A stretch of DNA of 64,000 nt from a virus: positions 62,001 to 126,000 of IMG/VR virus record IMGVR_UViG_3300019776_000919, one strand, 5' to 3'. The notes beneath the pieces were generated by a model. The model ran no database searches and had not been told where the DNA came from. It saw nothing but the letters and a program-made list of their open reading frames with translations. The translations under genes were made by a program, and so were the position numbers. Below are positions 1 through 45,479 of the stretch, one piece after another. Within the stretch, counting starts at the first letter, position 1, and each line of letters starts with the position of its first letter.

Positions 1-2127
1 TCCGTTTCACCCCAAGAGATGCCAACATCGCCTTCACAACCAATGGGTAATTGGAGCCAAGGAAATGCTTTCATCGGGTATTCATCCATGGTCCGATAAG
101 TTAGGTTAATAACTTCTGCTGCTTTTTCTATGGGGCACTCAATTTCTATCGAATCGTAGCTTGATTCAAAAATATTTTCATATTTTTATGGACTATATCA
201 TAATGTGTTTAATACCCAAGTACCAAACACATTCCGTGCGCTCTAGAGGTTTTACCACCCGGTCAGGGCTCCATACCTTAGTCTCTGAACCTTCCACCTA
301 TTCCTAGGCGGCTTGGCTGCTGATTATCCAATCTTTCTCTTTTTCAAACTATCACGTTTACTATTACTAATTACGTTGTAGTAGAGAAAGCTCTCAGGGG
401 TTTCCAGCAATTCACACGGTTTTCAGTTATTCCTCACGAAATAACGCCGCCTACGTTAACGGTACATGTACAAATAGCACCGAAAGGTTTAACTACTCTA
501 TTTACTTCTGTAAAAGTAGCCAAGCCGATAGTACTAGTTGCGCTTTGAATGATTACGTTTTGACTGTTGCGCAAAGAACCGTTATAAGCGGCTGTAGGCT
601 TGAAGCAATTATAAGTCCCGAACTGACGCTTGCGTTGGCCAAGCGGAGTAATACTGAACTGATTGTATAGTGCAAATTTATGAGCTTTTTCAATGTATTC
701 CTTTACTTTAGGGAAAGTGTTAAAGTACATTGCAATGAGCGTTTCAGCTTCCGATTTTTCCAGGTTAAGCTGCATTGCAATGCCTGCGATTGAAGATCCG
801 TATAAGCAGATACTCTATATGTTTCCATATAGTCTAGACTATACCATCATCCTTTTATCTGTGAATCGATAAAGGATGCTCGCCGTGTTATGGATAAATC
901 CATCCTAGTATCATCTGTTCTAGATGACCTATGAGTCGTTGAACCATTTATAACCATCCCTGGTTATTCTGGCTGCTGATTGCCATACCTGATTTCAGGG
1001 TTAGGGTTCCAGCAATTGAGCGAGTTTGCATACTTATGTTACCACAAGTAGGTACCGTAATCAATACTAAAAGTCAAAGTCTTGCTCAGCTGGCGCAACT
1101 CTTTATATTCCCTATATTTAGGATGACTGCTGTCTGACAACACAGCAATAATCTCTTCATAAGGAATCTTTCTCATGGCACTTGCAGAGAATGAATGGAA
1201 GTCCAATCCCTCTGCAATAGCTTTCAGCATAGCTGGCTCTTTGGATATGTTTGCTAGAACCTTGACTTCAGCAGAGCTAAAGTCAAAGCTAATAAACACA
1301 TACCCCTCCCTTACAGTATAACAAGTTCTTACGTTGTATCCGTGCCTTGCTCTTGGGAGCTGGGTCAGGTTAGGATCTGAACCGGTTATACGGAATGAAG
1401 AGGTGCCAAATTGATTGTAACTGGGATGAATTCGTCCGTCTCTTTTTACCCAGTCTTTGACGTACGTTTTAATGAACGTATTATGAACCGAGGAAATATC
1501 ACGGCGAACAGCCATATCAGCTAGGAACTGAAGCTTTTCATCTTTAGTTACGTATTTACCACCTAAAGGATCTAATCCTGCAAGAGTCAATAAGGCAACT
1601 CCATCAGTAGCAGGTTCACCACCTTTCGTAGTAAACGGTACTTCAAACCCTAGTTCTTCATACAAAAAGCTAGCTACTGCAGGGCCAGAATTTAAATCAA
1701 TTTTCTTCCCAATTTGAGAGAATATCTTATCTTCTAATTGAGCTATTTGCTCAACCATCTTTCTATCAAGGAATTGATTGCGGGGGATGGAATAACCCAT
1801 ACCTGCAATTTCCAAGTCGATAAGAAATTCATGAGCTGGTATTTCTAATTCCAAAAAGCTTTGAATTATAGGCGGAGCTTTCGAGTCCACTCTATTGCCC
1901 CGATCATCAAAATCGATAATCGGAGTTTCCATTACTAAATCTGGAAAAGTCTTGGCTAAAAGTTCAGACGTAGCAATGCAATCTATGCCTGCATAAGTAT
2001 AGAGTTTTTCTTCATCGAAATCTTCATACGTAAGTTTTTCTGAGGCGCTTACTTCTGATTTCTCTTTAGACTCGCTGTTTTCAGAATCGTCAAATAGTTC
2101 GTCAATCCAAATCAGTTGTGAACTCAT
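1..2127 (-). CDS. DNA polymerase I-type polymerase subunit, three exons, 3' end outside window
   Basis: Family A DNA polymerase, the phage replicase catalytic part. Exon 1 (2127 to about 1056) opens at an ATG overlapping the upstream stop (ATGA). It begins with an exonuclease motif III (Y45 xxx D49), then carries polymerase motif A (SFDFSSAEVK) and the start of motif B (RQLSKTLTFSIDYG). Exon 2 (about 800 to 459) resumes with SSIAGIAMQLN, which aligns at exactly the E. coli spacing after YG, and ends at FGAICTCTV. Exon 3 (159 to 1 and beyond) gives YDSIEIEC, so motif C reads VYDS instead of the usual VHDE. The two gaps hold group I intron cores. Without splicing, in-frame stops truncate the protein within motif B. 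Exonuclease motifs I and II lie in a separate gene at 2671-3963. Confidence 0.88.
160..458 (-). ncRNA. Group I intron 2 in the polymerase gene (299 nt, no ORF)
   Basis: On the minus strand the segment contains the ordered group I core elements: P-like GAATTGCTGGAAACCC, Q-like AATCAGCAGCCAAGC, R-like GTTCAGAGACTAA and S-like GATATAGTCC. The P7 pairing GACTA/TAGTC is present. The best junction leaves a U at the end of the 5' exon and a G as last intron base, and restores ACC GTC TAC GAT (TVYD). It lies inside polymerase motif C. No endonuclease frame is present. Confidence 0.88.
798..1055 (-). ncRNA. Group I intron 1 in the polymerase gene (about 257 nt, no ORF)
   Basis: Minus-strand core elements in order: CAATTGCTGGAACCC, CAATCAGCAGCCAG, GTTCAACGACTCA and GGTATAGTCTAG. 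Both boundaries carry ACGG (1055-1058 and 798-801), so the exact junction is ambiguous by four bases. Any of these cuts restores the O-helix reading DYGSSIAGIAMQLN. The insertion is inside motif B. Confidence 0.84.
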
Positions 2128-2670: not shown

Positions 2671-3963
2671 TTAATCGGCATATTCAGTGCCAACAGTTTC
2701 CAATTCAGCGTCAGCTTCTTTCGCTCTAAGCTTTGCTAGTTTCTTCAGATCACCTAGGCCATCTTCGTAACCAGCGTAACCTTCTTCGTACAGATAATCC
2801 CAGCAAGCTACCTTTAGGCCGTAACATCCTTGAGTACCAGATTCAATACTGTGCAATACTAGTAAAGTATCAAAAGTAACATTGACGACTCTAATGTTTT
2901 CTGCCCAATATAATACCAATATATCAAATTTTGCGTTGTGGCCTACTTTTGGTCGCTTACTTAAAAGAATCGGTTTAACTAAATCCCACGCTTCATCATG
3001 GTCATAAAATTTATTCTTACGATGCCGTAAAGGTATTACTCCAGCTACTACTTTACCCGTAACAGAGTCTCTCCATCCGAACTGAATAGTTAAGATTTTC
3101 AGATTTGGATCTAGCGGATCAAGAGAAGTTGTTTCTGTATCGAAAGATATTACTGCGTTTTCAGGAAGAGCTTCTATAGTATTTACTATAGATTTAACAT
3201 CTTCAATACTTCTTGCAATTTTGATTCTTTTGTTTAATGCAGTAAGAGCATTGAGATGAGTATCTGCGCCGAACTTCCAATCACCCCGGGCTATTTTTGC
3301 AGCTTTTTCAAAATCCCTCTGAATAACTTTCATATAGTCAGGCCCCCACATGCCGCCTTGACCACGGGCGTTTTGCCGAATATATGAAAGAATTCTGGGG
3401 TGTAGTGTAAGTACTACAGGACCGAAATCGGACATACATACTTCTCCCCGATTTCCAGAATTACTTTTATTTAACAGTCCTAAAGATTTTGTAGTAGCAG
3501 TTCCTAAAGATATAATTGCTTTAGGTTTTGTTCTCTTAATCTCTGCTAAAAGATACGGAGAACATTTCTGAAGAGTAGTTTGAGTAGGTGGTTTTCCTTG
3601 GGGGAAATCTGCATTACTGGCTTTACATTTAAGTAAGCTTACAACTCTGAAAGTAAGGCCTTCTAAACCAGATTGATTAGCTATGAAGTTTATGATACCG
3701 GCTTGGATATTGTCCTGTTGATCCGGTCTGCGATCATATTTACCAGGAGGGTTTTGATGATCTTGAATAATCAGAACATCCACTTCATGGTTTAAAAGAC
3801 TCACTACATTTGTAGTTTTACATTTTAGTTTACAGATTTTTTCACAATAAGTGTCATCTATTTTTGAGAAGTCAGTAAGTTTAATTATTGCAGCCTGAGT
3901 TGCTGCTGTTATTTTCGGCCTAGAGTAAAGTTCCTCTAGGCTAAGGTCTGTTAGTTTTGCCAT
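2671..3963 (-). CDS. Uracil-DNA glycosylase-like / DnaQ-type 3'-5' exonuclease fusion
   Basis: 430 aa from the ATG of MAKL. A longer frame begins at 3981 but overlaps the promoter. Residues about 35-200 resemble family 4 UDG: cysteines C40/C44/C48 and C113/C134 that could hold an Fe-S cluster, a VLIIQDHQNPP loop, and the terminal VLTLHPR strand. Residues about 265-430 are a DEDD exonuclease with motif I (SFDTET, D275/E277) and motif II (GHNAKFD, D347). Motif III is missing here and opens the separate polymerase gene. The two polypeptides probably act as one proofreading polymerase with a UDG-like module for uracil recognition. A TGGTATAAC box ends six bases before the ATG, so the mRNA may be leaderless. 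Confidence 0.8.
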   Translation of the reverse strand: MAKLTDLSLEELYSRPKITAATQAAIIKLTDFSKIDDTYCEKICKLKCKTTNVVSLLNHEVDVLIIQDHQNPPGKYDRRPDQQDNIQAGIINFIANQSGLEGLTFRVVSLLKCKASNADFPQGKPPTQTTLQKCSPYLLAEIKRTKPKAIISLGTATTKSLGLLNKSNSGNRGEVCMSDFGPVVLTLHPRILSYIRQNARGQGGMWGPDYMKVIQRDFEKAAKIARGDWKFGADTHLNALTALNKRIKIARSIEDVKSIVNTIEALPENAVISFDTETTSLDPLDPNLKILTIQFGWRDSVTGKVVAGVIPLRHRKNKFYDHDEAWDLVKPILLSKRPKVGHNAKFDILVLYWAENIRVVNVTFDTLLVLHSIESGTQGCYGLKVACWDYLYEEGYAGYEDGLGDLKKLAKLRAKEADAELETVGTEYAD

Positions 3964-3969
3964 ATTATT

Positions 3970-3978
3970 GTTATACCA
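3970..3978 (-). promoter_or_regulatory. Extended -10 promoter (TGGTATAAC), leaderless arrangement
   Basis: TGGTATAAC followed by six bases and then the ATG of the UDG-exonuclease gene. The expected transcription start falls on the A of the start codon. Confidence 0.6.
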
Positions 3979-3995
3979 CAAATACCTGTAAAACC

Positions 3996-29731: not shown

Positions 29732-30280
29732 TGGTAGGCCGTGTTGGATTCGAACCAACGACCAAAGGATTCGTACCACTTCGACTTTCGCCGCCGTCTT
29801 TCGACGTTCGTGGTCTGGACTATGTCTTGACCATACTACCGTCGCAGGTTAGGTCCGTGCTGTTTAGTCTCTACACCTTTCGCCTTAGGGGAGGCGACTT
29901 GGCTCGGCATTAGCTTGGAATTGTATGAACACGTCAGGAGTTCAGGAAAGGGCGCACCACAATCCTTCAGTCCATGATCACTATTCATGCCCTTCTTTAG
30001 CTTTCGCCGAATTTAACACGATTCATCCCAAATCTCACAGTAGTTCGCATTGCATCGGATTAACCTATCCTCTGAGGGGAGGATGATTGAATTATGCCTT
30101 GTGAGCATATCAATTTATTTGCAATGTTACTATACCGGCTTTTGATTTAGTTTATACGCCTTTCGGTTGAGTCGTTACGCCATCCGGGCTGATGACTACC
30201 GCTCATTTTTCGTAGATGCACAATACTGAAAATGAGATTTACTATGAGTCCTCTGCTCTAACCATCTGAGCTAACGGCCC
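29732..30280 (-). tRNA. tRNA-Met/Ile2 (CAT) interrupted by a group I intron
   Basis: Exon 1 (30280-30244) is GGGCCGT acceptor, D arm, anticodon stem GAGGA and CTCAT. Exon 2 (29771-29732) continues AATCCTT, T arm with TTCGAAT, ACGGCCT, A, and encoded CCA. The join restores a normal 7-base loop CTCATAA. The intron lies right after anticodon base 36. Acceptor pair 1-72 is G-U, so it is not a normal initiator. CAT could be Met or lysidine-modified Ile2. Confidence 0.9.
29772..30243 (-). ncRNA. Group I intron in tRNA-CAT (472 nt, no ORF)
   Basis: Minus-strand core: P-like AAATTCGGCGAAAGCTAA, Q-like AATGCCGAGCCAAGTCGCC, R-like GTGTAGAGACTAAACAG and S-like AAGACATAGTCC. P3 (CGGC/GCCG) and P7 (GACTA/TAGTC) pair. 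The 5' exon ends in U and the intron ends in G. The core wording resembles cyanobacterial tRNA-Leu (IC3-type) introns more than the two polymerase introns. Confidence 0.88.
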
Positions 30281-30331
30281 ACTGCCAACTTTTTAAAGCA
30301 TAAAGCAATGTACAGATTTCTCTGTACTATT

Positions 30332-30340
30332 CTTATACCA
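30332..30340 (-). promoter_or_regulatory. Full-consensus promoter of tRNA-CAT
   Basis: ATTACAACATGGTATAAGAATAGTA motif region about 50 bases before the tRNA. Confidence 0.7.
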
Positions 30341-30364
30341 TGTTGTAATACGATTATTGAATTA

Positions 30365-30526
30365 CTAAAGAGATCTCAGTTTGTATTTGTCATTCCTTCG
30401 GTATACAGTCTCTAACCACACCCAATGCACAACGTCTTCATTGTATTGATTTTGAGTAGTGACTAAAACCGGATACCAAGCAAACCAATTCTTCCATCCG
30501 TGGTCAGGTATGATTCTGATTCTCAT
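30365..30526 (-). CDS. Small hypothetical protein
   Basis: 53 aa, beginning MRIRIIPDHGWKNWFAW. Trp-rich with alternating beta pattern, basic C-terminus. The start overlaps the PEP-CTERM-like gene's stop by four bases. Confidence 0.6.
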   Translation of the reverse strand: MRIRIIPDHGWKNWFAWYPVLVTTQNQYNEDVVHWVWLETVYRRNDKYKLRSL

Positions 30527-36919: not shown

Positions 36920-36999
36920 GTTCTGCCTTTCGTGCAGTTGAGTGGTGGTGAAGGAAGATGGTAGGACGTACTGGATTCGAACCAGTGACCATCGGATTA

Positions 37000-37656
37000 C
37001 TTACTACTCCAGTTTTCACTGGCTGATTTTCATCATTGTAGTCTGGACTATATCATCACCTTCTGTCTTCACAGTTAAGGTGTCTTGCTCGTAGTCTCTG
37101 AGGACTCTCATAACGTCTAGGTAATCTGATAGCAAGTTTACCTTGCTATTCTGCCCGTTCTTAGGAGGATCGGCTCTCAGTGTCAAATGTGAACCTGTTG
37201 TTTTCAACAGCTCATCGTTTCTAATCCAAGCAATCTTGTCATCATCAACGCAGTAAACTGCATATATTTGACAATCTTTCATGTTGTATTGAAACCTATA
37301 ATTTGGCCCTGATTTCCAACCGCATACTGAATAAACCCCGTTTGTTTTAGTTACGGTTTTTACCTGTATGCCTATCAGCTTTGACTTTACTTCAAGCACT
37401 AAGTCTATTCTTGAGATATCACCGAGTTCGATGAATACTGAATATCCTAAGGCCAAAAGCTCAGTCGCTACTTTCATTTCTCCTAAATTACCTAATCGCT
37501 TAGTGTGCATAATCTTTTGGATTATACATCACAAGTTGCCTGCTGATTGACCAATCCTTTAGATTTTTACGACTGGGGTCGTACTAAAGGCTCTAAGGTT
37601 ATTCCAGCATATCGCAAGATTTTCATTCACATATTTCTATGTGACGCTTCCAATCA
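37000..37656 (-). ncRNA. Group I intron in tRNA-Lys (657 nt)
   Basis: Minus-strand P-like ATATGCTGGAATAACC and Q-like CAATCAGCAGGCAAC lie upstream of the ORF. R-like TCAGAGACTACGAG and S-like GATGATATAGTCCAG lie inside the end of the ORF. P7 pairs GACTA/TAGTC. The last intron base is G. Confidence 0.9.
37016..37510 (-). CDS. Intron-encoded PD-(D/E)XK homing endonuclease, I-Ssp6803I-like
   Basis: 164 aa inside the tRNA-Lys intron. Nuclease core: E11 (GNLGEMKVA), D36 (SRIDLVLE), Q49 and K51 (GIQVKT). This is the PD-(D/E)XK layout of I-Ssp6803I, the homing endonuclease of a cyanobacterial tRNA-fMet intron; the residue numbers appear to coincide with what I recall for it. It would cut intronless tRNA-Lys genes and promote intron homing. 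The C-terminal 45 residues are encoded by sequence that also forms the P7 part of the ribozyme, and the stop is 16 bases before the intron end. Confidence 0.85.
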   Translation of the reverse strand: MHTKRLGNLGEMKVATELLALGYSVFIELGDISRIDLVLEVKSKLIGIQVKTVTKTNGVYSVCGWKSGPNYRFQYNMKDCQIYAVYCVDDDKIAWIRNDELLKTTGSHLTLRADPPKNGQNSKVNLLSDYLDVMRVLRDYEQDTLTVKTEGDDIVQTTMMKISQ

Positions 37657-37737
37657 AAAGTCCGGTGCTCTACCAACTGAGCTAACGTCCCAAATTTGCA
37701 ACCTAGTATTTTACACTAGATTCTAATCGAAATCAAA

Positions 37738-38142
37738 TCAATTCGGCCCAAAGAAATAGATCCAATCACCCATCGTCAGTGCCAGCGACTGAGGGACCGT
37801 GCTGCTGAAAAGGTTTACCCACGCTGCGTACTCCGTCATGGCTGCAGTGTGTTCTTGAATTTTTGCATGGGCTTCAGCGAACGATTTCTGAAGATCAGTA
37901 TTCAAAACCACCTTTGGAGCAGCCCCGGTGTTGGACACCAGATTATGAGACTCGCTTTGGGTAATGGTTACCCCCTTGGTGCGGAGTTCTGCTTCAAGCT
38001 CGTCTTTCCGTTTTACCCAGTATTCAGCCCTGGATTTGCGAAATTCCAACTTCTTCTGTGCCGCTTTCAAAAGAATCGGCTGGTCAAAGTTGAACAACCA
38101 ATTTTCACGATGAGATTCGAAATGCTTAGGGTCAAGTAACAT
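37738..38142 (-). CDS. Hypothetical helical protein
   Basis: 134 aa from MLLDPKHFESH, which has GAAAGG upstream. A longer frame to 38184 lacks support. Charged helices (KAAQKKLEFRKSRAEYWVKRKDELEAEL) form a likely coiled coil. Ends LTMGDWIYFFGPN. GC-richer codons. Confidence 0.6.
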   Translation of the reverse strand: MLLDPKHFESHRENWLFNFDQPILLKAAQKKLEFRKSRAEYWVKRKDELEAELRTKGVTITQSESHNLVSNTGAAPKVVLNTDLQKSFAEAHAKIQEHTAAMTEYAAWVNLFSSTVPQSLALTMGDWIYFFGPN

Positions 38143-38162
38143 GACAGCCTTTCTATGGGGGT

Positions 38163-38377
38163 GCCCGACCCTCAAGATGAACAAACTCGTCTTACCACCA
38201 CAGCAGTCGGAGAACGAGGGTCGGGCGAAACTGAAAAATTATGAATCTGAGAGGTTGATAAGGGTGCTGGCTTCAACGCCACGGTCAATAGAGGAGGGTA
38301 TATTGAACGTGATTGGCCCAGAGGGTAGGCCTTTTATGAAACCAGCACTCCTATCAATCTCTACGGGACTTGATAGG
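38163..38377. ncRNA. Candidate multi-stem structured RNA
   Basis: No convincing gene in 38143-38493. Three perfect stems: GCCCGACCCTC/GAGGGTCGGGC (38163/38216), GTGCTGG/CCAGCAC (38264/38342) and CCTATCAA/TTGATAGG (38350/38370). It lies just upstream of a hypothetical gene and downstream of tRNA-Gly. Confidence 0.45.
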
Positions 38378-38493
38378 GGAATAGTGGTCGCCATTCCGCT
38401 TTTAAATTAGTGCTGTTCCTCAAGTATGCTTTTTATTGCATCGGTGCGGACCTCCTTGGCCGCTCGATTAATGAAGGCATGGTTTCAGGCAAA

Positions 38494-38567
38494 TGGAGCG
38501 GGGTACGAGACTCGAACTCGTTTAGGTAGCTTGGAAGGCTACAGCACAACCCATATGCCAACCCCGC
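38494..38567 (-). tRNA. tRNA-Gly (TCC)
   Basis: Acceptor GCGGGG(T)/(A)CCCCGC, anticodon loop CTTCCAA, T-loop TTCGAGT, encoded CCA. Confidence 0.93.
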
Positions 38568-38576
38568 AAAAGGCAG

Positions 38577-38678
38577 AAGTAGAGAAAGACCGGACGTTGC
38601 TCACATGAATGAGCTGGTTAATTCCTCCGGCATAGACCTGGGGCTAAACACCCCCTGCTTGCCACACATTCTCTACTT
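38577..38678 (-). ncRNA. Candidate structured RNA closed by a 10-bp stem
   Basis: AAGTAGAGAA/TTCTCTACTT closes 102 nt between tRNA-Gly and tRNA-Asn. Inside are GCTCA/TGAGC, CCGGA/TCCGG and GGGG/CCCC stems. It is cloverleaf-like in size but lacks a T-loop. Strand assumed from the flanking tRNAs. Confidence 0.45.
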
Positions 38679-38774
38679 TGCCAAAACTGAATAACGTCAC
38701 CCTTTACATCTTGTCTGTGGGGTGTTCACAATCGGCTTATCCAACAAGTCTCACCAATCGTTACGTCATATTTA

Positions 38775-38850
38775 TGGCTCCCCGACCTGGGCTCGAACCA
38801 GGGACCTACGGATTAACAGTCCGGCGCTCTACCAACTGAGCTATCAGGGA
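38775..38850 (-). tRNA. tRNA-Asn (GTT)
   Basis: Acceptor TCCCTGA/TCGGGGA (wobble pairs), anticodon loop CTGTTAA, T-loop TTCGAGC, encoded CCA. TGGTATAAT promoter at 38872. Confidence 0.95.
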
Positions 38851-38871
38851 ATTGTGAAAGTGGTATTTCAT

Positions 38872-38880
38872 ATTATACCA
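38872..38880 (-). promoter_or_regulatory. Promoter of tRNA-Asn (TGGTATAAT)
   Basis: TTGTGGTATAATATGAAATACC 22 bases before the tRNA. Confidence 0.7.
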
Positions 38881-39027
38881 CAATCAATGAACAGAAGCGG
38901 CAATCTAGTATGCCTATTACTAATCATTATTAGTACTGTACCCTACCTGAACGTTTAGTCGTGCTCCCAATGCTTCACATGGAAATATGCACGGATCAGG
39001 GTGTTACATGTTTACCGGGTCATTGAT

Positions 39028-39128
39028 TGGAGGAGAGACTGGGATTCGAACCCAGGTTTCAATGCCAATTCCTACCTTCGGTTGCTCCCGTGTAGTCCTT
39101 GCGTCCTAAGCCTCTAGACGATCTCTCT
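39028..39128 (-). tRNA. tRNA-like RNA A: Glu-type body with 32-nt anticodon loop
   Basis: Acceptor (A)GAGAGA/TCTCTC(C), with an A1-C72 mismatch. D arm GTCTAGAGGCTTAGGAC as in tRNA-Glu, T arm CTGGG-TTCGAAT-CCCAG, variable loop AAAC, and encoded CCA are all present. The anticodon stem CAAGG/CATTG (one mismatch) closes a 32-nt loop instead of 7. The loop contains its own hairpin CTAC-A-CGG...CCG-AAG-GTAG, so no anticodon can be assigned. Too short for a group I intron. Confidence 0.6.
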
Positions 39129-39136
39129 TTTTAAAA

Positions 39137-39250
39137 CCTCGTCAAGGTGGAATCAAACCACCATTATGGAGTTGGCATTGCCGTTACGAACAATCGTCGT
39201 GTTTGGCACGTCCTAGTGCTCCATTGTAATGCCATTATACTATCGACGAG
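39137..39250 (-). tRNA. tRNA-like RNA B: Gly-type body with 47-nt anticodon loop
   Basis: Perfect acceptor CTCGTCG/TGACGAG, Gly-like D arm (AGTATAATGGCATTACA), T arm GTGG-TTTGATT-CCAC, and discriminator G with no encoded CCA. Anticodon stem ATGGAG/CTCCAT is perfect, but it closes 47 nt with three small hairpins in a row: CGTG/CACG, ACGA/TCGT and GGC/GCC. No 7-base loop or anticodon can be defined. Confidence 0.6.
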
Positions 39251-39276
39251 TAACATCCGGTCAGCTACTCCGGAGG

Positions 39277-39366
39277 TTGAAATAGTTAGAAGCTTATTCC
39301 ACGAGCCGTTTATGGTCACGGTGCAAGAATGAACTTCGCTCTGAATACAGCTTCTAACTATTTCAA
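39277..39366. ncRNA. Candidate structured RNA closed by an 18-bp perfect stem
   Basis: TTGAAATAGTTAGAAGCT/AGCTTCTAACTATTTCAA. After one bulged base it continues as TATTC/GAATA, giving a 23-pair rod, with GAGC/GCTC and CCGT/ACGG pairs inside. Immediately follows tRNA-like B. Confidence 0.5.
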
Positions 39367-39369
39367 TTG

Positions 39370-40170
39370 GCAAAGCTCACATACCGTTACCAACAAAGTA
39401 GAACCAAAGGTCCGTGTCATGGTTTTTGCAAATGTCTGCGTGGAGCATGGCCCAGTCCAAGTTCAGACGTGATTGTGGTGATGCGTAGACGTTCAAAAGG
39501 GAAAGCATGTGAACTCCTAACTGTATGAAAGACAAGTCAAGCAATACCTTATCCAAGTGGCCTTATTGAGACTTTTCCAGTAAGAGGGACTCTCCTGGTA
39601 CGGTAGTCAAAAGGGGACTCAAACAAGTGCCGAAGGATTTACCCTGGGAGCCAAAATCACTTTCTTCACTCAAGTTTACCGCGAATAGACTTGATCTATT
39701 AGAACAAAGACTTGTCTTTAATACAGTCAAGGTGGATTGGAAATTACGCAAAAGGTGGTGAACCTCAGTCATCAATTTATAGTTGCGACCTATTGTTGCG
39801 TCTGGGATTAATAACCCGCTGTGTTTCGTGGCCACAAAGAGCACAGTTGAGAGTTACATGATCAGGTTCAGCCAACATTGAATTCTTCAGGTTCACCACC
39901 TTTTGCGCAAATTTAAGGTGCCCCTCCTTTGAGGCACGGTACTCTTACAAAGCAAGGCTCCTTGCGAACAAGGATCTTGGGAGGGGCATCTGAACTAGAA
40001 GGAAACTCCTAGTTCAGAACTTCGGTTCAGGCTGCGAGAGCCTGGACATAGCTGCTGTCATTGGCAGTTACTTGTTTACCTACATGTTTAACGAGCATAC
40101 AGGCTGGCTCGTGTTGTAGTCTAAGATACTAATCTGTCAATCGAATGCCTAGTCACCCCCATTGAACAGC
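39370..40170. ncRNA. Candidate large non-coding RNA within the tRNA array (about 0.8 kb)
   Basis: The longest gene-free stretch in the island. It has a 19-bp stem at 39747-39765/39889-39907, TGCCCCTCC/GGAGGGGCA (39919/39980), TGAACTAG/CTAGTTCA (39991/40009), a GAAC-TTCG-GTTC tetraloop hairpin (40018-40029), CAGGCT/AGCCTG and ACGAGC/GCTCGT. Size, density of stems and position among phage tRNAs recall GOLLD/ROOL-type RNAs, but identity is not shown. Confidence 0.5.
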
Positions 40171-40174
40171 TTAA

Positions 40175-40313
40175 TGGTGGAGGTGCCCGGAATCGAACCG
40201 GGGTCTTGCCAGTTGTTCTCTCTTTCTTTCAGATGAGCGAACTCATCACACAACAATTCTTTTAAAGGTCCAACTTCTACCTTTTTACTACTACATAACC
40301 GCAGGTGATACCT
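40175..40313 (-). tRNA. tRNA-like RNA C: T arm and acceptor with expanded body
   Basis: The 3' part is canonical: CCCGG-TTCGATT-CCGGG, CACCTCC, A, encoded CCA. The best 5' partner is GAGGGTG (one A-C mismatch and one G-U). Instead of normal arms there are AGGT/ACCT, AAAGGT/ACCTTT and a GTTGT/ACAAC stem enclosing a GATGAG-TTCG-CTCATC hairpin. The 3' end resembles tmRNA, but the segment is far too short and no tag frame is seen. Confidence 0.45.
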
Positions 40314-40335
40314 CTAACACCCTCGCTATGTTTAG

Positions 40336-40623
40336 TTAACCCTTCAGATTTTCATCTTTGGGCTTGATCCATTCCAATCTGAGAAAATTGGTGTAATCAC
40401 TGGGATCGTAACGGTCGTAGTACAAACACTGAGTGTGAATCCAGTGAGCTGTAATACGTACGTCTTCCGGCTTAGCATCAGGCCAACGTTCTTTAGCTTT
40501 AGCCAAAAGGCCTGCTAAGTCAAGCTGCTCGACATAATAGCCGGTTTCGATCCAAAATTCAGTCTCAGTGTCATCAGGCCAGAAGTCGACAATTTCTGTA
40601 CCCTTGCGAGTTGTTTTGCCCAT
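40336..40623 (-). CDS. Hypothetical protein
   Basis: 95 aa from MGKTTRKG, whose ATG overlaps the upstream stop (TAATG). The track-length frame to 40653 is longer but overlaps the neighbour. Acidic, Trp- and Tyr-rich. Function unknown. Confidence 0.6.
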   Translation of the reverse strand: MGKTTRKGTEIVDFWPDDTETEFWIETGYYVEQLDLAGLLAKAKERWPDAKPEDVRITAHWIHTQCLYYDRYDPSDYTNFLRLEWIKPKDENLKG

Positions 40624-41093
40624 TATGAAAACTCGTGGGCCACAAGATCCCAAGTACCTTTACCGTAGCCCACTGCCCCATGACCAAGGACACCTTCACC
40701 GTTGAGTCTGAGTCGAAGTAATCCTTTCGGACCCTTGATTGCGTTGTTCACGGAAAAGTAATGCTCTTCACTGGAGTACCATGCCCAAGGGCCGACCCAG
40801 GGTAGCGGATCTCGCTCCCAGGGAGGTATTTTGTTTTCTCGAACCATGATGATGTTCATCATTTGTTCAAAAGTTAAATCCGGCCAGGGATGACCTTCGG
40901 TATGGATACTACCCGTCTTCAACAATTTAACCCAGTCATCCAAGTCATTAATACCCTTGTCAGGGTACACTCGGAGTTTGAAGGTCCAACCAGCTGAAGA
41001 CTTTCCAATGTGAAGTGTTTGCGGCGGGTCGAATCGACCGCAACATTCACAAGGTTTACCAGCTTTTGTTGCAAGATAGAAATTGGTTCCCAT
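40623..41093 (-). CDS. Phage protein with N-terminal Cys knuckle
   Basis: 156 aa. Starts MGTNFYLATKAGKPCECCGR, then LHIGKSSAGWTFKL. Similar MGTNYYxxxxxxCxxCGR...HIGKSSAGW proteins recur in phages, without known function. The Cys cluster may bind zinc. Long polar C-terminal half. Confidence 0.65.
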   Translation of the reverse strand: MGTNFYLATKAGKPCECCGRFDPPQTLHIGKSSAGWTFKLRVYPDKGINDLDDWVKLLKTGSIHTEGHPWPDLTFEQMMNIIMVRENKIPPWERDPLPWVGPWAWYSSEEHYFSVNNAIKGPKGLLRLRLNGEGVLGHGAVGYGKGTWDLVAHEFS

Positions 41094-41122
41094 TACGCCC
41101 TCCGTAATAGAAGTTATTCGGG

Positions 41123-41275
41123 TGGTTAAGCAGGGATTCGAACCCCGGTACAGTCACAAGCAAATGTGTTAGCCGAACTTGTACGCCTCATGGAGGAGGA
41201 CCGTCATAGTTTGGTTACTGGCCAAAGAGGCTACTTTGCTGTTGTCTGTGTTTTGCCGTATTAAACTACTTAACC
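41123..41275 (-). tRNA. tRNA-like RNA D: tRNA body with insertion of about 90 nt
   Basis: Perfect acceptor GGTTAAG/CTTAACC, D arm GTTT-AATACGGCA-AAAC, T arm CGGGG-TTCGAAT-CCCTG, discriminator A, tail CCC rather than CCA. A short stem ACAG/CTGT takes the place of the anticodon stem and closes about 90 nt with CAAAG/CTTTG, CCTC/GAGG and ACAAG/CTTGT hairpins. No anticodon can be read. Confidence 0.58.
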
Positions 41276-41288
41276 GAAACTTTTTGCA

Positions 41289-41405
41289 CCCATAGATCAA
41301 GGCTTGATTACTCCGCATAGGCTGCGGTTTTCTTAGTCATTCACTGTCGGTGTCACCCATCCCAGGGCCAATTCCGGGATTGATAATCTAGCCTTGATCT
41401 ATGGG
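41289..41405. ncRNA. Candidate structured RNA closed by a 16-bp perfect stem
   Basis: CCCATAGATCAAGGCT/AGCCTTGATCTATGGG encloses 85 nt with CCGCA/TGCGG and ATCCC/GGGAT stems, a three-way-junction shape. It sits 13 bases from tRNA-like D and 11 bases before the next gene's end. Confidence 0.5.
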
Positions 41406-41416
41406 CACGTTTGAAA

Positions 41417-41605
41417 TTAACCTTGTTGTTCCAAGGCTTTTGCCCAAGTCCATGCAGTCAAGAAAAGCGCAAATATTCCCAGCACTGCTACTACTAACAC
41501 AAGGATGGCAAGCCCTATGCCGGTAGGTTTGGTGGTCAAACTCATCGTAACGACAAGAGTGGCAGTACAAATTATCCACGCAAGCCAGACATTTTTCAGA
41601 GTCAT
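41417..41605 (-). CDS. Small membrane protein
   Basis: 62 aa. Two transmembrane segments (VWLAWIICTATLVVTMSL; IGLAILVLVVAVLGIFALF). AGAGGTG lies upstream of the ATG. Preferred over an overlapping Cys-rich frame. Confidence 0.55.
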   Translation of the reverse strand: MTLKNVWLAWIICTATLVVTMSLTTKPTGIGLAILVLVVAVLGIFALFLTAWTWAKALEQQG

Positions 41606-41659
41606 TATTAAACACCTCTGGTCAGAATTGAGATGAAGACTGAGAATCGAATTTAAGAT

Positions 41660-41751
41660 TGGCGGGTAAGGTGAGATTCGAACTCACGGAGCATCTTTCA
41701 ACACCCGACGACTTAGCAAGCCGCTGCCTTAGACCACTCGGCCACCTACCC
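41660..41751 (-). tRNA. tRNA-Ser (GCT)
   Basis: Acceptor GGGTAGG/CTTACCC, anticodon loop TTGCTAA, long variable arm, TTCGAAT T-loop, encoded CCA. Confidence 0.93.
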
Positions 41752-41776
41752 TGCGCATAACTCAATCCTACAAACT

Positions 41777-41867
41777 TGGCGGAGGCGGTGAGATTCGAAC
41801 TCACGGGCCGGGGTTACCGACCGACGGTTTTCAAGACCGTTGCATTAAACCACTCTGCCACATCTCC
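41777..41867 (-). tRNA. tRNA-Ser (TGA)
   Basis: Acceptor GGAGATG/CGCCTCC (with mismatch/wobble pairs), anticodon loop CTTGAAA, long variable arm, T-loop TTCGAAT, encoded CCA. First RNA gene of the minus-strand island, behind two promoters. Confidence 0.93.
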
Positions 41868-41891
41868 AATTTTATTTACTAAGCAAGTTGT

Positions 41892-41922
41892 ATTATAACT
41901 TGGTTACATCATTCTTATACCA
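41892..41922 (-). promoter_or_regulatory. Two stacked promoters for the tRNA-Ser pair
   Basis: Upstream copy at 41914-41922 (TTGTAATATACATGGTATAAG, full type) and AAGTTATAATAC at 41892-41897. Confidence 0.65.
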
Positions 41923-41950
41923 TGTATATTACAACTTATTGAAAAAAGTA

Positions 41951-42310
41951 TTATATCATACTTTGTTCTTCAGCAAGCAACGCACAAAACTTCAGCCACG
42001 CATAGCGTGTAGGTTGACGAGTCTTTGTAGAAGGAAACTCCTCGAAGGCAAGTGTAGTAGAAGGGTTTAGTCCTAGTTCTATAAGACCCCGGCGAATTAC
42101 TTTTCCTATTTTGTATGCCGTTTGAATATTCCCGCCCTTATCTCTAACCGTGGCATAAACTGCTTTAGTAATCGCAAGGCAGCTATATAATTCTTTATTT
42201 GTATTATGAGGTTTTATAAAAGAATTAGCAAGAAACTCATCAGCAGCACGATGGAGTATTTCTGCAATGATTTCAGAGGTGATCATTGCGTAGTCGATCT
42301 TTTTACTCAT
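41951..42310 (-). CDS. Tandem paralogue family, copy 4
   Basis: 119 aa. Pattern shared with three upstream genes: an N-terminal helix with RAADEFLAN, and a C-terminal FEEFPxxxTRQxxRYAWLKFCALLAEE. Overlaps the previous copy by four bases. Family function unknown. Copies keep the terminal motif while the middle diverges. Confidence 0.65.
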   Translation of the reverse strand: MSKKIDYAMITSEIIAEILHRAADEFLANSFIKPHNTNKELYSCLAITKAVYATVRDKGGNIQTAYKIGKVIRRGLIELGLNPSTTLAFEEFPSTKTRQPTRYAWLKFCALLAEEQSMI

Positions 42311-45023: not shown

Positions 45024-45479
45024 TTAACCTTGATTCTTCTTACCCTTAAGGGTAATTTTCTTGCGTCCGGATTTTCCGGTCTTGCCACGAGCCTCCTCGT
45101 CATCAAGCACGGGTTGAGTCGAGTCAACCGTCAGCTTCAAGGGGGCGTCGGACTTCGCCGTGGTTTCTTCAGCAGTATTGGCGGACTTCTCAGACTTACC
45201 CGCTTTTTCAGCTTTCAGTGACTTTTCCAGCTTGTTCTTGGAATTGTCGATGAATGATATTATCGGCAACAGAACGTTGTCGAAGTTGTGGTCCTCGGGA
45301 CGGACTCCCAAGCGATGCTTGAGTTGGTCTACTCCAAGGTCCTTGACTGATAGGAGCTTCGCAATCTGAGCTTTGCGAGTCTCCGGCGTACCCCGGTTAA
45401 CGCCATTGAACCGATCCAGGAAGTTCTTCACATTCCGGGCTGATGCTGAGGCGTAACGTGCTTGGGATTGTACGGTCAT
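45024..45479 (-). CDS. Hypothetical protein with Lys-rich disordered tail
   Basis: 151 aa from MTVQSQARY, preceded by GAGGAATCC. Residues 1-85 form a helical domain (KNFLDRFNGVNRGTPETRKAQ). The last 65 residues are Lys/Ser/Ala-rich and end KKITLKGKKNQG. GC-rich and possibly nucleic-acid binding. Full-consensus promoter at 45848, with a 350-nt leader in between. Confidence 0.6.
   Translation of the reverse strand: MTVQSQARYASASARNVKNFLDRFNGVNRGTPETRKAQIAKLLSVKDLGVDQLKHRLGVRPEDHNFDNVLLPIISFIDNSKNKLEKSLKAEKAGKSEKSANTAEETTAKSDAPLKLTVDSTQPVLDDEEARGKTGKSGRKKITLKGKKNQG

What the first reader, a model, noticed from the sequence alone, without database searches (positions are those of the whole stretch)
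39028..41275. A cluster of four tRNA-like genes whose anticodon loop is replaced by structured RNA
Seen directly: four minus-strand RNAs (A 39028, B 39137, C 40175, D 41123) have tRNA T arms and acceptor stems. A, B and D also have D arms. In A and B, and less certainly C and D, a stem in the anticodon-stem position encloses 32 to about 90 nt with internal hairpins instead of a 7-nt loop. The inserts are too small for group I introns and show no P/Q/R/S core. They sit among normal phage tRNAs. Inference: either a new class of small tRNA intron, or tRNA mimics with no decoding role, for example decoys for host anticodon nucleases or aminoacylation-dependent RNAs.
Basis: partly seen in the sequence, partly recalled or inferred. 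Interest (0 to 1): 0.88.

Follow-up and report, generated by a model that had tools for sequence, protein, structure and literature searches.

The report
Phage tRNA genes with interrupted anticodon loops
A large phage carries three tRNA-like genes whose anticodon loop is interrupted by 40-100 extra bases (the fourth reported one is an ordinary permuted tmRNA); related phages carry tRNA genes with small inserts that, if cut out, restore the right anticodon, which hints at a kind of tRNA splicing I found no description of in phages.

Summary
Checked: A (39028-39128), B (39138-39249) and D (41121-41275), all minus strand, are genuine tRNA-like genes with acceptor, D and T arms and a 47-102-nt stretch where about 22 nt is normal. 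Nothing similar appeared in 60 shuffles. C is not one of them: it is the acceptor/T-arm piece of a permuted tmRNA (Rfam RF04321, 81.5 bits). The inserts are not group I introns, and B's and D's are not more structured than shuffled sequence.

The context is the news. Related and unrelated tRNA-rich phages carry tRNA-Asn, -Lys, -Met and -Leu genes with 21-75-nt inserts between anticodon bases 34 and 35. Five hairpin inserts share one architecture with compensatory changes. Carriers usually encode tRNA-repair enzymes; this phage has Pnkp-Hen1. No archaeal-type splicing endonuclease was found.

Best reading: interrupted pre-tRNAs matured by protein cut-and-seal splicing. For the window this fits B (excision gives a Gly GCC loop), but not A or D, which no single excision restores; those look more like tRNA-scaffolded RNAs, as in T4 species 1 RNA. 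Splicing itself is inferred. The new small introns lie in relatives, not in the window.

The parts
39028..39128 (-). Element A: tRNA-like gene; acceptor AGAGAGA/UCUCUCC (6/7), D arm GUCU(AGAGGCUUA)GGAC, T arm CUGGG(UUCGAAU)CCCAG, encoded UCCA end
   Evidence: (34.5 bits, RF00005)
39056..39102 (-). Element A: 47-nt stretch between D and T arms in place of the anticodon arm; no single excision gives a canonical loop
   Evidence: insert fold z -2.06
39138..39249 (-). Element B: tRNA-like gene; acceptor UCGUCGA/UUGACGA (7/7), D arm GUA(UAAUGGCAU)UAC, T arm GGUGG(UUUGAUU)CCACC, no encoded CCA
   Evidence: ARAGORN with introns allowed: Gly(gcc) i(34,40)
39178..39217 (-). Element B: candidate 40-nt intron (between 32 and 33); excision leaves CU-GCC-AA on a perfect 5-bp stem UGGAG/CUCCA
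   Evidence: shuffles restorable 7.7%
39936..40267 (-). Permuted tmRNA gene (the finding's 'C' is its T arm/acceptor); tag ANDSSYVQALAA
   Evidence: RF04321, 81.5 bits, 40027-40231
41121..41275 (-). Element D: tRNA-like gene; acceptor GGUUAAG/CUUAACC (7/7), D arm GUUU(AAUACGGCA)AAAC, T arm CGGGG(UUCGAAU)CCCUG, no encoded CCA
41148..41249 (-). Element D: 102-nt stretch between D and T arms; not restorable to a canonical loop; insert fold z -0.49

Best explanation
A, B and D belong to a recurrent set of interrupted tRNA genes in tRNA-rich large phages. In the clearest members (relatives, not this window) a short hairpin, a multi-hairpin or a whole tRNA-like cassette sits between anticodon bases 34 and 35. 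I propose that these are introns: the precursor folds with the insert extending the anticodon stem, an endonuclease cuts at both borders, and phage tRNA-repair enzymes (Pnkp-Hen1 in this phage; Rnl1, Rnl2-like ligases and Thg1 in others) heal and seal the exons into a decoding tRNA. Shown: the genes, the insert position, restoration of an isotype-matching anticodon, the shared fold with compensatory changes, and the repair genes. Inferred: cutting, joining and use in translation. Unknown: the endonuclease. In the window the scheme fits B (Gly GCC). For A and D it works only with an unrecognised junction; otherwise they are tRNA-scaffolded RNAs that never decode.
For: Three strong tRNA-like genes against 0 in 60 shuffles. 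In G009, G022 and G023 tRNA-Asn holds CUG|32-33 nt|UUAA; in G024 and G026 tRNA-Lys holds CUU|30-31 nt|UUAA. The first pattern fixed only CU and AA of the loop, yet all five hits have UU before AA and the right base 34. G026 Met (CUC|73 nt|AUAA) and Leu (CUC|57 nt|AAAA) were found without a pattern and match the isotype of their bodies. G025 holds two tRNA-Lys copies differing by one base outside a 21-nt hairpin insert at CUU|UUAA, an empty and a filled site. Five hairpin inserts: outer 8 bp, 40 of 40 standard pairs, 7 of 8 positions with changes on both sides; fold z -3.4 to -4.9. Tooling: Pnkp + Hen1 in this phage; Rnl1 4/4 vs 2/18; Thg1 7/9 vs 2/16. A similar Asn/Lys pattern in 257 Gb of bacterial and archaeal genomes gave only duplication artefacts and one archaeal chance hit.
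Against: No RNA data. A and D cannot be restored, B only at odds near chance (7.7% of shuffles), and B's junction would be 32/33, not 34/35. B's and D's inserts are not more structured than shuffles. About ten insert-bearing genes elsewhere are not restorable either. No homologues of A, B or D were found, so no conservation test was possible. RNA ligases also occur in phages without such inserts (G015, G018); G037, which has an insert, has neither PF09414 nor Thg1. Repair genes and inserts may both simply track tRNA richness, the controls were not all surveyed for inserts, and later patterns imposed part of the anticodon. No splicing endonuclease was found (PF01974 absent in 14 records).
Confidence: 0.45

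Rival explanations
1. A and D (and perhaps B) are tRNA-scaffolded non-coding RNAs or decoys. RNase P and 3' processing give them tRNA-like ends and stability, while the former anticodon arm carries a different domain, for example bait for anticodon nucleases or a binder of a synthetase or EF-Tu. They never decode.
For: Acceptor, D and T arms are well paired while no anticodon can be restored in A or D. T4 rnaC (species 1 RNA, a small stable RNA in its tRNA cluster) has a T arm and a 7/7 acceptor-like pairing in its 3' part. Similar non-restorable genes occur in G022, G026, G009 and isolate XacN1. The phage has a tRNA-repair operon, so anticodon nucleases are a plausible pressure.
Against: B and D inserts show no structure beyond shuffles. 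B and D lack an encoded CCA. It does not explain isotype-matched restoration in the relatives' 34/35 genes.
Confidence: 0.33
2. A, B and D are decaying tRNA genes: insertions destroyed the anticodon arm and they are on the way to loss.
For: Weak insert structure, A1-C72 mismatch in A, U56 in B's T loop, missing CCA in B and D; A and D cannot be restored.
Against: All acceptor, D and T stems of B and D pair fully; three such genes stand within 2.3 kb; the relatives' Asn/Lys inserts show compensatory changes.
Confidence: 0.17
3. The inserts are shrunken group I introns or another self-splicing element.
For: In this window tRNA-Met and tRNA-Lys carry group I introns (29792-30061, 46.2 bits; weak matches at 37021-37667 around a PD-(D/E)XK homing endonuclease).
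Against: No Rfam group I match in 38000-42000 at E<=5. 21-57 nt cannot hold a group I core (established knowledge). The group I sites appear to be 35/36 and 36/37 after a U, while the small inserts follow G, U or C at 34/35.
Confidence: 0.03

Closest known systems
Archaeal/eukaryotic protein-spliced tRNA introns (bulge-helix-bulge, EndA/TSEN)
   Same: Short structured insert in the anticodon loop of a tRNA; removal restores the anticodon; would need endonuclease plus ligase
   Different: Phage genomes; insert at 34/35 rather than the canonical 37/38; predicted fold is a 4-bp helix with a mismatch and a small asymmetric internal loop, not a bulge-helix-bulge; no PF01974 endonuclease found
Group I introns of bacterial tRNA genes (Leu UAA, fMet, Arg, Ile)
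   Same: tRNA anticodon-loop insertion; two such introns occur in this window (Met, Lys)
   Different: 21-75 nt, no catalytic core, no U requirement before the 5' junction. A 2014 review (PMC3984707) states that phage introns known then were all in protein genes
Phage T4 species 1 RNA (rnaC) in the T4 tRNA cluster
   Same: Small RNA of unknown function beside tRNAs, with T arm and acceptor-like pairing
   Different: rnaC is 139 nt with a long 5' domain; A, B and D keep a D arm and an insert at the anticodon position
Phage tRNA-repair systems (T4 Pnkp/Rnl1; bacterial Pnkp-Hen1; Thg1)
   Same: Carried by this phage (Pnkp-Hen1) and the insert-bearing phages; jumbo-phage review PMC7824862 and XacN1 paper PMC5852040 describe them as repair or tRNA maturation
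   Different: Known role is mending nuclease-cut tRNAs; splicing of interrupted genes is my inference
Permuted tmRNA (RF04321)
   Same: Element C is one
   Different: Not an interrupted tRNA; A, B and D have D arms, no tag reading frame and are not permuted

Membership tests
Permuted tmRNA (element C) | Covariance-model match with permuted order and a tag reading frame | tested here: met
   RF04321 81.5 bits vs cut-off 47; ARAGORN tmRNA*, tag ANDSSYVQALAA
tRNA (A, B, D) | Acceptor, D and T arms in register | tested here: met
   0 of 60 shuffles
tRNA (A, B, D) | 7-nt anticodon loop with U33, as transcribed | tested here: not met
   47, 63 and 102 nt between D and T arms; not called by ARAGORN without introns
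Interrupted tRNA gene with a removable intron | Single excision restores a canonical loop on a 5-bp stem | tested here: inconclusive
   B yes (Gly GCC; 7.7% of shuffles also pass); A and D no
Interrupted tRNA gene with a removable intron | Spliced RNA product | not testable with these tools
   no RNA data available
Group I intron | Conserved catalytic core | tested here: not met
   no match at E<=5 in 38000-42000
Archaeal/eukaryotic BHB intron | 3-nt bulge, 4-bp helix, 3-nt bulge at the junctions | tested here: not met
   folds of the relatives' inserts; A, B, D folds
Archaeal/eukaryotic BHB intron | tRNA splicing endonuclease (PF01974) in the genome | tested here: not met
   0 of 14 insert-bearing records; 4 archaeal controls ring. 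Records may be incomplete and a host enzyme is not excluded
T4 species-1-like tRNA-like stable RNA | Stable transcript without decoding role | not testable with these tools
   sequence anatomy only

The most novel reading that the evidence does not exclude
Large phages possess a protein-dependent tRNA splicing pathway: 21-75-nt introns, some of them whole tRNA-like cassettes, interrupt the anticodon between bases 34 and 35 in Asn, Lys, Met and Leu tRNA genes and are removed by cutting and by the phage's own RNA-repair ligases, with window elements A, B and D as further, more divergent substrates.
Probability: 0.4. Interest if true: 0.93.

Novelty: new variant of a known kind. Interest (0 to 1): 0.74.

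Why it matters
To my knowledge bacteria and their viruses are known to splice tRNAs only with self-splicing introns. If these small inserts are removed, phages use RNA-repair enzymes as a splicing machine, which would give ligases and Thg1 in phages a second job and could explain why an intron sits at a bond inside the anticodon that some anticodon nucleases cut. It would also mean that tRNA counts for large phages miss genes, since default ARAGORN does not report the interrupted ones. If they are instead decoys, they are a candidate counter-defence against tRNA-cutting immunity. Both can be tested in a cultivable phage (XacN1) or with synthetic genes in E. coli.

Tried and rejected
Element C as an interrupted tRNA: rejected, permuted tmRNA. 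Group I remnant: no Rfam match. Homologues of A, B and D: blastn of the whole region gave only ordinary tRNA matches among the best rows, blastn of D gave none, blastn of A+B in 21 related records gave only short fragments. Conservation tests on A, B and D were therefore impossible. Body divergence as evidence against decoding: rejected, ordinary phage tRNAs are as divergent. RNA ligase presence as a discriminator: rejected, also in G015 and G018. RtcB: only in G018 and G021. Candidates in bacterial genomes were tandem duplications of tRNA pieces and one unrelated archaeal hit. Isolates: blastn with the inserted Asn and Lys genes found no record covering the insert (neighbourhoods looked at in 67-70). 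A wider-gap scan was mostly neighbouring tRNA pairs, with three real new inserts (L348=L355, L349, L351). ARAGORN intron calls of Leu(caa) in G003 (L084/L085) appear to lie in coding sequence and were discarded.

Full report
The window is bases 62001-126000 of a 169,713-base IMG/VR virus record, here G000.

Observation. ARAGORN finds ten ordinary tRNAs and a permuted tmRNA. The tmRNA, 39936-40267 on the minus strand, is confirmed by Rfam RF04321 at 81.5 bits and accounts for the finding's element C. A narrow Rfam scan gives A 34.5 bits as tRNA with an insertion in the anticodon arm. A descriptor scan for acceptor, D arm and T arm finds A, B and D, and 60 dinucleotide shuffles of the window give none. 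B and D pair 7/7 in the acceptor. Between D and T arms lie 47, 63 and 102 nt. The insert folds are not convincing: z = -2.06, -1.06 and -0.49. No group I match exists in 38000-42000 at E<=5.

Can an anticodon be recovered? I enumerated every single excision that leaves a 5-bp stem (at least 4 pairs), U33 and a purine at 37. B yields CU-GCC-AA with 40 nt removed between 32 and 33; 7.7% of shuffled middles are restorable, so this alone proves little. A and D yield nothing.

Relatives. RNA polymerase beta and helicase searches gave related phage records. Scanning 1.5 Mb of them showed a tRNA-Asn in G009 with a 32-nt insert, CUG|...|UUAA, plus tRNA-like genes in G009 and G011. A single pattern scan of IMG/VR, fixing only CU and AA of the loop, returned five contigs, all with inserts at 34/35: Asn in G009, G022 and G023, Lys in G024 and G025. 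A second pattern added Lys in G026. Nearest-body comparison supports Asn and Lys, with L264 (G026 Lys) truncated and less clear in that test. G025 also has an insert-free tRNA-Lys that differs by one base outside the 21-nt insert.

Architecture. In the five 30-33-nt hairpin inserts the anticodon stem continues through a C32-A38 mismatch, a 4-bp helix (U33-A37, 34-36 as G-U or U-U, i1-U35, i2 with the last intron base as U-A or C-G), a small internal loop and an 8-11 bp hairpin. The outer eight hairpin pairs are standard in 40 of 40 cells, with double-sided changes at seven of eight positions (hand-aligned). Fold z-scores are -3.4 to -4.9. The sequences are few and partly related, so this is support, not proof.

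More cases. The 340-350-kb phages G022 and G026 hold several interrupted genes. Two were typed without any pattern: G026 Met, CUC|73 nt|AUAA, nearest body Met; and G026 Leu, CUC|57 nt|AAAA, nearest body Leu. A wider-gap scan added Lys with a 50-nt insert containing a T-arm-like hairpin (L348=L355) and two nested tRNA-like cassettes ending in ACCA: 75 nt in an Asn gene (L349) and 69 nt in a Lys gene (L351). A Met scan added L360 and L361=L363. For these last cases the pattern imposed part of the anticodon and the bodies were not typed. About ten other interrupted genes, like A and D, are not restorable. A similar Asn/Lys pattern in 84,980 bacterial and archaeal genomes gave only artefacts and one chance hit. 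The isolate XacN1 holds two unannotated tRNA-like genes with long middles (30282-30386 and 45297-45440) and an unannotated permuted tmRNA.

Tooling. This phage encodes Pnkp (865 aa: kinase, metallophosphatase, ligase) and Hen1 (433 aa) side by side at about 49.5-53.4 kb of G000. G024 has the same pair plus Rnl1 and Thg1; G009, G022 and G026 have Rnl1, Rnl2-like ligases and Thg1; G011 has Thg1. Rnl1 is in 4 of 4 insert records of at least 97 kb found by the Asn/Lys scans vs 2 of 18 others; Thg1 in 7 of 9 insert records vs 2 of 16 others; Fisher p about 0.002 each. The choice of groups was made after seeing the data, and genome size and tRNA number are confounders. No PF01974 splicing endonuclease occurs in 14 records. 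Jumbo-phage literature treats these enzymes as repair of nuclease-cut tRNAs (PMC7824862; PMC5852040). Searches of the paper library found no report of such inserts, but the library is partial.

Conclusion. The set of 34/35 inserts is best explained as introns removed by cut-and-seal splicing; this is inferred from restoration and structure, without RNA evidence. The window's B may be a divergent member. A and D are real tRNA-like genes of unsettled role, closest in kind to T4 species 1 RNA, whose 3' part carries T-arm and acceptor-like pairings. The finding's own coordinates thus hold one ordinary tmRNA and three unusual genes, and the strongest novelty lies in relatives that the finding led to.

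Noticed in passing
window 29733-30280 (minus): tRNA-Met (CAU) interrupted by a group I intron (Rfam 29792-30061, 46.2 bits, just under the cut-off of 50); 5' exon starts at 30280. L361 has a very similar Met body with a 37-nt insert instead.
   Followed up: partly
window 36958-37691 (minus): tRNA-Lys (UUU) whose exons are separated by a weakly matching group I intron that carries a PD-(D/E)XK homing endonuclease ORF (37016-37510, PF11645).
   Followed up: partly
window 169-467 and 815-1073 (minus): Two group I introns (78.5 bits each) beside the pieces of a family A DNA polymerase gene, which is split over ORFs 1039-2127 and 2671-3981.
   Followed up: no
G000:49481-53376 (L280), outside the window: Phage-encoded Pnkp-Hen1 RNA-repair pair, homologous to the pair in G024; such a pair is also reported in XacN1.
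   Followed up: partly
window 39278-39367, 39748-39910, 41290-41405: Three long inverted repeats with near-perfect stems in the non-coding stretches between the tRNA-like genes and the tmRNA; possible further structured RNAs (seen by eye, not tested).
   Followed up: no
L364 (XacN1 1-50000): 30563, 39053, 42569, 45202, 45979: tRNAs annotated Lys, Gly, Thr, Cys and Asn with long class-II-type variable arms (86-91 nt), unusual for these isotypes; G009 tRNA-Gly at L073 9164-9253 is similarly long.
   Followed up: no
L364 37201-37621 (XacN1): Unannotated permuted tmRNA, tag ANANTFDYALAA; permuted tmRNAs also occur in G009, G022 and G026.
   Followed up: no
L349 3929-4079 and L351 2838-2982: tRNA-like cassettes ending in ACCA nested inside the anticodon of another tRNA gene, at bond 34/35.
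   Followed up: partly
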